Part shown: positions 2,179-47,703 of the stretch, piece by piece
How positions within the stretch are numbered: position 1 is the first letter of the stretch
How the letters are laid out: every line of letters begins with the position of its first letter
Assembly (NCBI RefSeq): GCF_950295315.1
Contig: NC_080181.1
Span: 39,647,375-39,711,374, forward strand
Direction of reading: 5' to 3'
Origin: Erinaceus europaeus
Taxonomy: Eukaryota > Chordata > Mammalia > Eulipotyphla > Erinaceidae
DNA: 64,000 nt
Made by a program: the position numbers and the translations under genes
Notes under the pieces: model-generated
What the model was told of the DNA's origin: nothing
Databases searched by the model: none
What the model saw: only the letters and a program-made list of their open reading frames with translations

Positions 2179-3350
2179 CATGGTTAAGATGTATGTTATT
2201 TTAAGCTACAAAGTTATGTGGTTATGTAGCATTTTATTACTAGTAAACTCAGTATATATGAATATAAAAATATTAGCAATCATACCATGTTATGAATGGA
2301 TTCAAATCAAAAGACTAGACAAGTTTATCTGGATGAGAAAGGAGTTTTGACCCCTGATTAAGGCTGTTTTTCTTTGTTTGAAGGGCCTCTGAGAAGCAGG
2401 AAAGTTTGAAATGTTCTTGGGATTCTGAAGGGAAGGACTGGGTACTGACTGGACTAAGCAGGTGTGAATATGAGGTAGGCAAGAGCTGGCTGCCCTGGGC
2501 ATAGAACAGACTGGTTTTCTCACCTTTCTGGAAGCACTGACATTGTCTTGAGCTTTTGTTGAGGAAGAGACCTGTTTCTCCCTCTAGATGACCTATGCTA
2601 TACTGTCAGATAATATTTACCTTAAGGCTTTGTGATGGTGAAATGATTCAAAGGTTCTTTTCCAAAACAGACTTGAGTAGGTGTAATACAAATGCAAGTC
2701 AAAGAAATAGGTCAATCCTGAACTCAAACATGGCAAAGCAGTGGTCGATGTGGGCACACAGGGTGACTGTACAATAGACACCTCATCATAAGATCCCAAT
2801 GAAAGTGGAGCGTGTATGTGTGATTTCTCAAGAACAGGTGAGTGCAATTCTCACTGTTTTATTCCAAAAGCTCAGAGAGGGTGTTTTGGAAATGAGGTGT
2901 CAGCTGGTTCTTATACTAAGGAGGTCAGAACACAGGGTCCACAGAGCTATAATAACTGTAATGACCAATGAGAGAAGGGGGGTAGAAGCAAATGCTAGAA
3001 GAACGTGGAGTGAAGGGTCGTTTCTCTATAAGTGAGTTTTATGAGGATTTTTTTCCTGTAGTTTTGTTCTGTAAAACTTGTAATAAGATCAGTGATATGC
3101 ATCTTAAATCCCCTATGTATGGTTAGAGCTGAGTGTTGGTTTCATTGCCAAGGTGTTGACTGACAGGGTTAGATCAATGCTGGAGATCTCCATGCTGGTC
3201 CCTGCAGACTTGCTGGGTTTCAAGTAGGGTCTGTCCTCTGAGCAGAGATCTGCTCAGTGGAACTCCTCTCCCACTCTGCTTTTCATGTCCAGGCTAGAGA
3301 CATGATTCAGAGGAACTCCCACAAACATTTCATGGGTTTCCATTTAAGCA
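2179..3350. other. Unclassified, apparently single-copy sequence
   Basis: About 1.2 kb without a recognisable repeat or exon. Short open frames here have no family resemblance that I can identify. Confidence 0.4.
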
Positions 3351-5325: not shown

Positions 5326-5825
5326 GATGCCAGTTAAGGAGAGGTCTTAAAAAGTGTCCATTGTAAATACTTGAATGGCATCTATATTATCCTCTGTGGG
5401 TATTTGCATTTAGTGTTTATTTGAAATAAACTAATGGGATGAGGTTCTAGCTGGGGTATTGGGGCACCTTCCAGTACAACACAGCAGGCAGGATTATTAG
5501 GTAGCAAAGTCTTTCTTTCTGAAATCACAGTTACTTCTACCTCTGCTCTTTGAAGGAAAGTTTTTACTTTTAGATGCTTTAGATGGGGCTAATGAGGAAA
5601 GTAGCTTTTGTCAGGGAGGCAACTGAGGTAAAACTAATAGCTATTATTCCATGCATAGCCAGTCCAATTAGGAAGAATTCCTCCAGCACAGGGTTCAGAA
5701 TTGTGCTTGTAAGTATGCTAGAAGGGGCAAGTCTCAAAGGAAGAGATACGGGCCAGTTCTTTAGTTAATATTATTCATTGAGCATCTCTGTAGTCAGAGT
5801 CTCTATATATTAAAAAATGTTCCTG
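5326..5825. other. Unclassified sequence
   Basis: About 500 bp with no recognised element. Confidence 0.35.
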
Positions 5826-24962: not shown

Positions 24963-25469
24963 AGTTTTCATTGACCTTCTCTATCTGACAGCAGTGAGAG
25001 TGAATGGGATGCAGTGAGGCAGGACTGTCAGTGTTTTACTTCCTCATCCTCCTCTCCCAACCTCCACCATAGCAATCAAAGGAGGACTTTGTCTTTCTGA
25101 CTAAACCTTTGCTCCTCAAATCCATGGAGTTTGGCAGCATAGGTGAGCAGTGAATTTCCACCCCTACCTCATTCTAGCAACGAGGTGATAAAATCAACTC
25201 TCTGTCTTTCTCCTCCTACTTTTTCTGCTGGCAGTGTGTCCAGTAAGGGATGAGAGCATTGCTTTTCCTGAGAAGGTGCTGGTGGGTCCAAGAGGAGGCT
25301 GAACTCTTGGTAAACATGTTTGCACTGAACTGTTGTTCATTGCAGGCTGTGTCTCCTCCATGTCTGTTTCTGCATGGCAGTATTCCACGAAGTATCAGGG
25401 AGGTCATGTCAGGCATGATACACTTTATGCAGAGAAATGAATACATGTGCACAGCAATGCATGGGTTAT
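24963..25469. other. Unclassified sequence
   Basis: About 500 bp immediately upstream of the L1 fragment; nothing recognised. Confidence 0.35.
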
Positions 25470-26235
25470 CTGGGCAAAGAGACCCCTCACAGAATGGGAG
25501 AAGATCTTCACATGCCATACATCAGACAAGAAACTAATCACCAAAATATATAAAGAGCTCAGCAAACTTAGCACCAAAAAAGCAAATGACCCCATCCAAA
25601 AATGGGCAGAGGATATGAACAAAACATTCACCTCAAAGGAGATCCAAAAGGCTAACAAACATATGAAAAACTGCTCCAGGTCACTGATTGTCAGAGAAAT
25701 GCAAATTAAGACAACACTAAGATACCACCTCACTCCTGTAAGAATGGCATACATCAAAAAGGACAGCAGCAACAAATGCTGGAGAGGTTGTGGGGACAGA
25801 GGAACCCTTTTACATTGCTGGTGGGAATGTAAATTGGTCCAGCCTCTGTGGAGAGCAGTCTGGAAAACTCTCAGAAGGCTAGACATGGACCTTCCATATG
25901 ATACAGTAACTCCTCTCCTGGGGTTATACCCCAAGGACTCCATAACACCCAACCCAAAAGAGGTGTGTACTCCTATGTTCATAGCAGCACAATTCATAAT
26001 AGCTAAAACCTGGAAGCAACCCAGGTGCCCTACAACAGATGAGTGGCTGAGAAAGCTGTGGTATATATACACAATGGAATACTATGCAGCTATCAAGAAC
26101 AATGAACCCACCTTCTCTGACCCATCTTGGACAGAGCTAGAAGGAATTATGTTAAGTGAGGTAAGTCAGAAAGGTAAAGATGACTATGGGATGATCCCAC
26201 TCATCAATAGAAGTTGAGTAAGAAGATCTGAAAGG
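25470..26235 (+). mobile_element. L1 ORF2 C-terminal fragment, open reading frame intact
   Basis: One frame stays open from 25447 to a TGA at 26215-26217 (256 codons); L1 similarity starts about ten codons in. The segment corresponds to the end of L1 ORF2p, downstream of the reverse-transcriptase core. Visible landmarks: PLTEWEKIF near residue 13, [18 protein letters not shown] near 84-101, and the L1 C-terminal cysteine motif C111-x3-C115-x7-H123-x4-C128 (CWRGC...LLHCWWEC). Then PLLGLYPKD and [14 protein letters not shown] follow. Intact L1 ORF2p is about 1,275 residues, so only about the last fifth is left; endonuclease and RT catalytic parts are absent. No 3' UTR or poly-A follows the stop, unlike other L1 ends in this window. 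The reverse 215-codon frame over it is a shadow. Confidence 0.93.
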
Positions 26236-42587: not shown

Positions 42588-43700
42588 TTTTTTTTTTTTT
42601 GCCTCCAGGGTTATATCTGGTCACTGTGCCTGCACTTCTTCTTCTAGCGTTTGCCCTTCTTCCATAGCCAGTCAACAGCATCAGGTTGAGCCTGATGTAA
42701 AGTTTCGAGACCTCCTTTGAATCTGGAGAGGTGGCAGTCATTGACTATGTGGGTCATAGTCTGTCTGGAGCCGCAGGGGCAGTTCGGGTCGTCTCTGGCT
42801 CCTCAGCGATGGAACATAGCGGCGCACCGGCCATGGCCTGTTCGATAGCGATTGAGGAGGGCCCAGTCATAACGTGCTAGGTCAAAGCCGGGTTGACGCT
42901 TGCAGGGGTCTGTGATGAGGTGTTTGTTCTTGACCTCAGCTGACTGCCAACTCTGTTTCCAAGAGACTGGAACAGAGAAGTTCAGTGTAGGCGTAGGGGA
43001 CCAGATTGGGTGACGAGACATCAAACGTTGAACAGGGTGGGCAAAGATATCCGTGTATATTGGCAGGTCCGGTCGAGCATAGACGTGGGAAATGAACTTA
43101 GATGATGCCGCATCCCGACAAATATCTGGCGGGGCGATGTTGCTAAGAACTGGCAGCCATGGAACCGGGGTGGAACGGATGGTTCCAGAAATTATCCTCA
43201 TGGAGGAATATAATTTGGAATCGACCAAGTGGACATGGGGGCTACGGAACCATACTGGGGCACAGTATTCTGCAGTGGAATAGCATAATGCCAGAGATGA
43301 TGATCGTAGTGTGGAAGCGCTCGCGCCCCATGAGGAGCTGGCCAGTCTTGCAATGATGTTATTCCTCGCGCCCACCTTTGCTGCAGTTTTTATGAGATGT
43401 TTGTGAAATGACAGAGTGCGATCGAGAGTAACGCCAAGATAGACTGCCTGCACTATGAATCCACTACTCCTGGCAGCCATCTTTTTTCTATTATTGTTGA
43501 TGTTATTGGATAGGACAGAATGAAGCTGACAGAGATGGGGAAGACAGAGGAAGAGACGCTTGCTTCACCTTTTGTGAAGTGACCCCCCTCCCCCCGCAGG
43601 TGGAGAGCCAGGGGCTCAAACCTGGATCCTTATGCCTGTCCCCACAATTAGCACCATGTGCGCTTAATCCATGCAGTACTGCCCAGCCTCTGCCCCTTTC
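42588..43700 (-). mobile_element. SINE family A-long, split by a Vingi LINE insertion
   Basis: Left piece is the start of the 3' module (poly T, gcctccagggttatatctgg, to 42635). The right piece resumes at 43445 (tgcctgcactatgaatccac, ggcagccatctttttt), then the core and head actgcccagcctctgcccc. The 9-bp tgcctgcac is present on both sides of the insert. Confidence 0.88.
42636..43444 (-). mobile_element. Vingi-type non-LTR retrotransposon, 5'-truncated RT C-terminus
   Basis: An 809-bp insert flanked by an exact 9-bp target-site duplication, tgcctgcac (42627-42635 and 43445-43453), inside a SINE. On the minus strand one frame runs through the whole insert. It starts at VYLGVTLDRTLSFHKHL (the post-catalytic RT/thumb region), passes YSTAEYCAPVWFRSPH and PWLPVLSNIAPPDICRD, and reaches a terminal Cys/His cluster C-x-C-x7-H-x4-C. 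One in-frame TGA (42803-42805, probably a former Trp codon) splits it; 52 more codons follow to the natural TAG (42644-42646). The stop lies directly against an AAGAAGAA tail, so there is essentially no 3' UTR. This protein type is unlike L1, L2, CR1 or BovB. From memory it matches the Ingi/Vingi group reported in hedgehogs by Kojima and colleagues. Endonuclease and RT catalytic motifs are absent. The clade assignment is from recognition, not a search. Confidence 0.85.
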
Positions 43701-46450: not shown

Positions 46451-46512
46451 TGTTGCTTTTTTGAAATTTCCTTTGTCCAAGGAAATGATACTTATACCTT
46501 TTGTTTTATTTT

Positions 46513-46693
46513 CTTCTTCTTCTTCTTCTTCTTCTTCTTCTTCTTCTTCTTCTTCTTCTTCTTCTTCTTCTTCTTCTTCCTCCTCCTCCTCCTCCTCCTC
46601 CTCCTCCTCCTCCTCCTCCTCCTCCTCCTCCTCCTCCTCCTCCTCCTCCTCCTCCTCCTCCTCCTCTTCTTCTTCTTCTTCTTCTTCTTCTTT
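46513..46693. repeat. (CTT)n-(CCT)n-(CTT)n compound microsatellite
   Basis: About 180 bp of uninterrupted pyrimidine triplets on +: CTT units, then CCT units, then CTT units. It gives false poly-Ser, poly-Leu and poly-Pro open frames. Confidence 0.98.
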
Positions 46694-46835
46694 TTCTTAA
46701 CCTTTATAAATTCCTTTTAGGGCTTTGATATTGGGAGAGTCAGTGCTGGTAAAAGTCAATGGGTTAAGAGTAGCTCTGGTAAGTTACCCTTGTCTGGAGA
46801 ATGTGAGTGGTTAAGTGGAATAATCTTTCCTTCCT

Positions 46836-46863
46836 GTGCTCGCTTCGGCAGCACATATACTAA
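46836..46863 (+). ncRNA. 5' fragment of a U6 snRNA copy (pseudogene)
   Basis: 28 nt identical to the start of vertebrate U6 as I know it: gtgctcgcttcggcagcac (the 5' stem-loop) then atatactaa. The remaining approximately 80 nt are absent; (CCTT)n begins at once. No upstream PSE/TATA context was recognised, so it is a retro-derived or truncated fragment, not a gene. Confidence 0.85.
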
Positions 46864-46927
46864 TCCTTCCTCCCTCCCTTCCTCCCTTCCTTCCTTCCTT
46901 CCTTCTTTCCTTCTTCCTTTCTCATTT

Positions 46928-46991
<64 letters not shown>

Positions 46992-46996
46992 TTTCC
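46864..46996. repeat. (CCTT)n-(CTTT)n microsatellite
   Basis: Tetranucleotide pyrimidine array beginning right after the U6 fragment. Confidence 0.97.
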
Positions 46997-47167
46997 TTTA
47001 CCCTCTAATTGGATATCCTGAAAGTGGGGGTTCTTCTTTGAGAGCTCTGATTCTCGCAGGATTTGGAATGACTCAGTGATTTTTTTTTTCTTTAACAAAT
47101 TGCTGAAGCAAAGGATCTTTGTGTTCTGAAGGCCTTCATCTTTGACAAATATACAAAGCTTAGCCCT

Positions 47168-47362
47168 TTTTTCAAAGACTTATTTATTTATTAATTTATA
47201 AGAAAGGACAAAAGAGGAAGAGGAGAAAGAGAGTCAAACTGGGAGCCACAGCACTGCTCGGTTGTGGTACAGGGTTGTGCTGCATATTGAACCAGAGTGA
47301 CATAGGTACATCAGACATGACATGGTGTTCTACCCAACTCAGCTATGTTCCTGCCCCCTTTT
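47168..47362 (-). mobile_element. SINE family E/C-like
   Basis: tttatttattaatttataag tail, cagcactgctcggttgtggt, ttgaaccagagtgacatag, head accCaactcagctatgttcc. Confidence 0.65.
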
Positions 47363-47437
47363 ATTTGTGTGTGTGTTATATTTAAATAAAACAGCCTCCT
47401 GTGCATGTAATTTCATTACTCACTAGCTAACCTTTTT

Positions 47438-47575
47438 ACTCAGAGCAAGGGTGAGAAAGACAGAAAGGGAGAGAACTGCCACAGCACTGGAGTTTCCTTT
47501 GGTGCCACGGCACTTCCATATGGTTCTGGAACCAGAACCTGGTATTCACTCTACTTGGTAAACTATTTCTTTTCT
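47438..47575 (-). mobile_element. SINE family E
   Basis: agaaagacagaaagggagag, ctgccacagcactggagttt, ggaaccagaacctggtattc. Confidence 0.6.
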
Positions 47576-47589
47576 CTTTTCTTCTTTCT

Positions 47590-47703
47590 ACAACTCTCTT
47601 CTTCTTCTTCTTCTTCTTCTTCTTCTTCTTCTTCTTCTTCTTCTTCTTCTTCTTCTTCTCCTCCTCCTCCTCCTCCTCCTCCTTCTCCTCCTCCTCCTCT
47701 CTC
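47590..47703. repeat. (CTT)n-(CCT)n compound microsatellite
   Basis: Second pyrimidine triplet array, same strand bias as 46513-46693. Confidence 0.97.

What the first reader, a model, noticed from the sequence alone, without database searches (positions are those of the whole stretch)
42636..43444. Vingi-type LINE fragment: a non-mammalian-looking retrotransposon in a mammalian genome
The sequence shows an 809-bp insert with an exact 9-bp target-site duplication. A single reverse frame encodes an RT C-terminal region (VYLGVTLDRTLSF, YCAPVWFRSPH, PWLPVLSNIAPP) unlike L1, L2, CR1 or BovB. From established knowledge, Vingi elements were described in hedgehogs and proposed as horizontally acquired. 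The copy has a single nonsense mutation over about 270 codons, so it is fairly young relative to most LINE fragments here. It also identifies the host lineage.
Basis: partly seen in the sequence, partly recalled or inferred. Interest (0 to 1): 0.82.

Follow-up and report, generated by a model that had tools for sequence, protein, structure and literature searches.

The report
Truncated Vingi-type LINE in mammal SINE
A young, shortened and dead copy of a LINE retrotransposon, of a kind already reported from hedgehogs, sits inside an older SINE; it is an ordinary member of a known but, for a mammal, unusual family.

Summary
The insert is 808 bp (42637-43444, element on the minus strand). An exact 10-bp target-site duplication (42627-42636, 43445-43454) flanks it, and it lies inside an older SINE that other window copies show uninterrupted. 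It encodes the last 266 codons of a LINE protein with one nonsense codon, then TAG and a short AGA-type tail. The genome (2.72 Gb, unnamed) gave 2547 first-look candidates; the 40 scored, the window included, are 97-100% identical. A full-length copy (3.08 kb) has one 995-codon frame with endonuclease and reverse-transcriptase domains and no RNase H, as recalled for Vingi. Passages seen here report Vingi in hedgehogs, one calling it a likely horizontal transfer. The window copy differs at 1.24% of sites from the majority of 20 close copies, and its stop is private: it is young. Five of 46 scored full-length matches have no stop. Not shown: a direct match to Repbase Vingi-1_EE, the donor or direction of transfer, the host species, the orthologous site elsewhere. 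Verdict: correct reading, known family, low novelty.

The parts
42637..43444 (-). 5'-truncated Vingi-type LINE copy, 808 bp, 3' end intact
   Evidence: Exact duplication on both sides; 20 fetched genome copies align over all 808 bp at 97.5-98.1%, no indel in the window copy against their majority
42627..42636 (.). target-site duplication, left copy TGCCTGCACT
43445..43454 (.). target-site duplication, right copy TGCCTGCACT
42644..43444 (-). last 266 codons and TAG stop of the element's single ORF: the region after the RT core, starting at VYLGVTLDR, with a CxCG..QTM.HIV..C motif near the C-terminus
   Evidence: corresponds to the end of the 995-codon frame in L018
42803..42805 (-). nonsense codon TGA at codon 214; Trp in at least 95% of 70 aligned relatives; private to this copy (0 of 20 other genome copies)
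42637..42643 (-). short 3' tail AAGAAGA directly after the stop codon; other copies carry AGA-type tails of varying length
42588..43690 (-). host SINE (tRNA-type head near 43690 recognised by eye, A-rich end near 42588; edges approximate), interrupted by the LINE copy in the same orientation
   Evidence: 29 other related copies collected in the window; several run uninterrupted through the insertion point

Best explanation
This is a dead-on-arrival copy of a Vingi LINE family of the kind reported from hedgehogs (EN + RT, no RNase H). Most likely steps: the element's endonuclease nicked the DNA of an older SINE; the RT primed at the AGA-type 3' end of an element RNA and copied 808 bases before stopping; second-strand synthesis closed the gap and left the 10-bp duplication. 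After or during insertion the copy picked up a nonsense codon and a handful of other substitutions. Shown: boundaries, duplication, 3' end, truncation, membership of a multi-copy family in this genome, kin with open full-length frames, youth. Inferred: target-primed reverse transcription, the name Vingi, the host being a hedgehog, horizontal origin of the family.
For: Exact 10-bp duplication. Uninterrupted SINE at the same site in other window copies: 10 of 39 blast pieces span the joined site by 15 bases each side; alignment. Genome: 2547 first-look candidates, 40 scored, the window itself and 39 others at 97-98%. 20 of those 39 fetched: all 20 keep the 3' end; 2 reach the 5' end and 18 begin at 18 different points by blast extent, 2 of these 18 being inversion junctions. 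Full-length L018: 3082 bp, 10-11 bp flank match, one 995-codon frame with PF03372/PF14529 and PF00078 and no RNase H family at E <= 1. PF00075 is in the precomputed domains of 0 of the 120 relatives listed. Window copy 10 of 808 sites (1.24%) from the majority of 20 copies, whose own range is 0.87-2.10%; the stop is private. Literature: PMC5753468, PMC3183009.
Against: No Repbase or Dfam sequence of Vingi, Ingi, Jockey, L2, CR1 or RTE could be compared, so the clade name rests on architecture, relatives and literature. The Kojima 2011 paper is not held. A 2025 survey of African hedgehog LINEs does not use the word Vingi in its main text and lists 4476 'I-Jockey' copies instead (PMC12026660); whether these are the same elements is not known. 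A flank match of 8 bp or more was found in only 10 of the 20 fetched copies.
Confidence: 0.92

Rival explanations
1. It belongs to another LINE clade of the I/Jockey/Ingi group, and 'Vingi' is the wrong label.
For: No clade reference was at hand; a hedgehog survey lists I-Jockey copies and does not name Vingi in its main text.
Against: No RNase H match in a 993-aa full-length protein argues against Ingi and I, which carry it (recalled); two papers place Vingi in hedgehogs.
Confidence: 0.06
2. It is an ordinary mammalian LINE fragment (L1, L2, CR1 or BovB).
For: Mammalian genomes are full of these (recalled).
Against: The full-length protein matches L1 ORF2 chains in the PDB only over the RT core (residues 422-644, E about 7e-12), whereas 57%-identical relatives over 98% of the length exist, without organism names. 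The close copies are only about 1-2% diverged, while L2 and CR1 are ancient in placentals (recalled). L2, CR1 and BovB were not compared directly.
Confidence: 0.02
3. The family was inherited vertically and lost in other mammals, not acquired horizontally.
For: Old Vingi traces exist in human (X12_LINE in PMC5753468; one pre-amniote Vingi fossil in PMC9004415), and Vingi is reported in reptiles.
Against: No mammal is among the named rows of the listed relatives, whereas the named rows listed for an L1 query in the same database are mammals. PMC3183009 calls it a likely horizontal transfer. In the full-length tree the element sits on a long branch of 0.64 changes per site, so no near donor is seen either. 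None of this is decisive.
Confidence: 0.25
4. The sequence is assembly contamination.
For: The organism-named relatives are not mammals.
Against: The copy is nested in a local SINE with a duplication, and the scored copies lie on many contigs, most of them the large ones.
Confidence: 0.005

Closest known systems
Vingi-1_EE / Vingi-1_AAl (hedgehog Vingi LINEs; Kojima, Kapitonov and Jurka 2011, seen here only as a reference in other papers; the _AAl name is recalled)
   Same: Host group as inferred, EN+RT ORF without RNase H, young multi-copy family
   Different: Not compared letter by letter; no difference known
Ingi (LINE clade)
   Same: Vingi is titled an 'Ingi-related clade' (reference)
   Different: Ingi carries RNase H (recalled); none matched here
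L1
   Same: AP-type endonuclease plus RT, 5' truncation, target-site duplication, and 5' inversions of the twin-priming kind in some copies
   Different: Protein alike only over the RT core; AGA-type tail, not poly-A; one ORF of 995 codons found

Membership tests
Vingi clade of non-LTR retrotransposons | ORF with AP-type endonuclease followed by reverse transcriptase | tested here: met
   L018 protein: PF03372 27-184, PF14529 116-209, PF00078 490-733
Vingi clade of non-LTR retrotransposons | No RNase H domain, unlike Ingi (recalled as the distinguishing feature) | tested here: met
   No RNase H family at E <= 1 in Pfam for the 993-aa protein; PF00075 in the precomputed domains of 0 of 120 listed relatives
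Vingi clade of non-LTR retrotransposons | RT phylogeny: sister of Ingi, among Vingi references | not testable with these tools
   No named Vingi or Ingi references held; the trees hold proteins without clade names
Vingi-1_EE (hedgehog family) | High DNA identity to the Repbase consensus | not testable with these tools
   Repbase/Dfam not available; Kojima 2011 not held
Vingi-1_EE (hedgehog family) | Young, multi-copy in a hedgehog genome | tested here: inconclusive
   Young and multi-copy: met. Hedgehog host: inferred only; G000 is unnamed
LINE inserted by target-primed reverse transcription | Target-site duplication, intact 3' end, variable 5' truncation | tested here: met
   Window copy. Other copies: 3' end in 20 of 20, 18 different 5' starts plus 2 at the 5' end, flank match of 8 bp or more in 10 of 20
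L1 | L1 ORF2-like protein over its length and poly-A tail | tested here: not met
   RT core match only; AGA-type tails

The most novel reading that the evidence does not exclude
The family may still be able to move in this species: 5 of 46 scored full-length matches have no in-frame stop, and some copies are 5'-inverted in the way twin priming makes them for L1, so a LINE whose named kin are not mammals would be working in a mammalian germ line today.
Probability: 0.3. Interest if true: 0.45.

Novelty: already known. Interest (0 to 1): 0.22.

Why it matters
The copy is an everyday member of what is most likely a published family. The family is of interest as a rare case of a mammalian lineage with a restricted, probably horizontally acquired LINE. 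The numbers here (2547 first-look candidates for the 3' part, of which 40 were scored; close copies at 1-2% divergence; several open full-length frames) show that a chromosome-scale assembly could date its burst and test present activity.

Tried and rejected
Ordinary L1: rejected. Contamination: rejected (nested in a SINE with a duplication; copies on many contigs). A first look at decay used 41 positions conserved in at least 95% of 70 relatives and found two departures, codons 109 and 214; 21 of the 70 relatives had as many or more, so this did not set the copy apart. The genome copies then showed codon 109 to be a family variant shared with 10 of 20 copies, so only the stop is private damage there. 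Pfam on the fragment in two pieces finds nothing, since the fragment begins after the RT core; PDB on the fragment finds nothing. A scan of viral contigs found no relative. The L1 search meant to name the host gave mammals but no hedgehog in the 120 rows listed of 7999. Trees: the fragment tree (71 rows: the 70 of 120 listed that span the fragment, plus the window) put the window copy beside unnamed P0003 (93/89), in a group of 35 rows (93/93) that also holds the eel and turtle rows; 27 of 68 inner branches are well supported. The full-length tree (45 rows: the element and 44 of 104 usable relatives, namely the rows at 50% identity or more, the organism-named rows and every sixth of the rest) put it in a 24-row group of unnamed proteins (100/100) apart from the named arthropods; its bootstrap had not settled and the element's branch is flagged as long. 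Neither tree names a donor.

Full report
Observation. The minus strand of 42637-43444 carries an 808-bp insert with an exact 10-bp direct repeat on both sides, TGCCTGCACT at 42627-42636 and 43445-43454. Read on the minus strand, the insert opens at VYLGVTLDR, runs for 266 codons with one TGA at codon 214, ends at a TAG and has AAGAAGA before the next repeat copy. By blastn at E <= 1 the only other match in the window is a 19-base chance stretch.

Site. The flanks are the two halves of a SINE on the same strand. With one copy of the repeat removed, 10 of 39 blast pieces from the window span the junction by at least 15 bases on each side, and an alignment with 29 other collected copies shows several running through the site. 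The host SINE is 71% identical to the rough majority of these copies, so it looks much older than the insert; this figure mixes subfamilies and is only a guide.

Family in the genome. The window lies in an unnamed 2.72-Gb genome of 1172 contigs. The insert gave 2547 first-look candidates, of which 40 were scored; one is the window itself and the other 39 are at 97-98% identity, nearly all over the whole query. I fetched 20 of these 39 with flanks. All 20 keep the same 3' end. Two (L009, L018) reach the 5' end; 18 begin at 18 different points by blast extent, 824-2651 bp from the 3' end, some of them one base apart. In two of the 18 (L012, L024) that point is the junction to an inverted 5' part. 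In 10 of the 20 a flank match of 8 bp or more is found, against 5 of 380 mismatched pairs; the test looks at the apparent 5' edge, so it cannot find the duplication of the inverted copies.

Full-length anatomy. L018 is 3082 bp from TGGGATGC to the tail, with a 10-11 bp flank match. It has one 995-codon frame with AP-endonuclease (PF03372, PF14529) and RT (PF00078) matches and no RNase H match at E <= 1. A protein search of the genome scored 46 of 75766 first-look candidates; all 46 are about full length, and 5 have no in-frame stop, L018 (the query) among them. On the other side, L009 and three further full-length copies read here (L030, L031, L032) have broken frames, with longest stretches of 357-712 codons. 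A search with the 5' 801 bp gave 2918 candidates, 40 scored at 97-100%. Of 6 such copies read, three are full-length, two (L029, L034) show the 5' part inverted against the 3' part, and one (L033) breaks off after base 1508 of the reference. In L029 and L034 the inverted part ends and the upright part begins within 2-3 bases of the same element position, as twin priming predicts.

Age. The window copy differs from the majority of the 20 copies at 10 of 808 sites (1.24%); one more site, at codon 109, is a 10:10 tie among the copies. Six of the ten are CpG transitions; two of the ten are private, one of them the stop. The 20 others range from 0.87 to 2.10%, and 4 of the 20 have one stop in this piece. 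The 20 were taken from the places nearest to the window copy, which biases the figure low. CpG observed/expected in the insert is 0.72, against 0.11-0.19 in 8-kb bins of the window. With a recalled mammalian rate near 2e-9 per site and year this means a few million years; I put no more weight on it than that.

Relatives. The 213 codons before the stop match 816 proteins, 120 listed. Twelve of the 120 rows name an organism: an eel (58%), a turtle (53%), a pseudoscorpion (two rows) and insects (eight rows); none is a mammal. The full-length protein matches 478 proteins at E <= 1e-20, 120 listed. Eleven rows name an organism, all arthropods; one unnamed metagenome fragment is 96% identical over 57% of the length, and the best full-length relative, unnamed, is at 57%. 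The named rows listed for an L1 query in the same database are mammals. The fragment tree groups the element with unnamed relatives, the eel and the turtle, apart from the named arthropods; the full-length tree, which has no eel or turtle, groups it with unnamed relatives, again apart from the named arthropods, on a long branch. This fits but does not prove horizontal transfer.

Literature. Papers seen: PMC5753468 (passages: Vingi reported in hedgehogs and reptiles; X12_LINE listed under Vingi in human); [quoted passage not shown] Vingi-1N3_EE with 311 copies under 1% divergence in hedgehog); PMC9004415 (one passage: one Vingi among pre-amniote fossils in human); PMC12026660 (abstract, passages, section 3.3: African hedgehog, 4476 I-Jockey LINE copies, the word Vingi absent from the main text); PMC3391268, PMC7561263 and PMC3747384 (passages). 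The others were seen as search listings only. Kojima, Kapitonov and Jurka 2011, the original description, is not held and was seen only in reference lists; that Vingi lacks RNase H and that other mammals lack young Vingi are recalled.

Verdict. It is an ordinary copy of what is most likely a known family. The unanswered questions are about the family (donor, route, present activity), not about this copy.

Noticed in passing
L012 (near 7224), L024 (near 6930), L029 (near 101), L034 (near 3303-3313): Copies of the family whose 5' part is inverted against the 3' part, as twin priming (known from L1) would make: 2 of 20 copies fetched by their 3' end and 2 of 6 fetched by their 5' end.
   Followed up: partly
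L009, in element orientation around 5750-5812: The 5' end of this full-length copy is preceded by a second, partial copy of roughly the first 30 bases of the element, which hints at a 5' repeat unit.
   Followed up: no
window 25441-26217 (+): An uninterrupted 258-codon frame of the C-terminal part of L1 ORF2; best database match 72%.
   Followed up: partly
window 46511-47699: Long pyrimidine-rich arrays (TTC, TCCT, TTCT, TCT, CTC) in the 2-kb bin with the strongest strand skew of the window.
   Followed up: no
G000, 46 scored full-length protein matches: 5 of 46 have no in-frame stop, so some full-length copies keep an open frame.
   Followed up: no
L033: A 5' copy that breaks off after base 1508 of the reference with no further match in the stretch fetched; cause not determined.
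   Followed up: no
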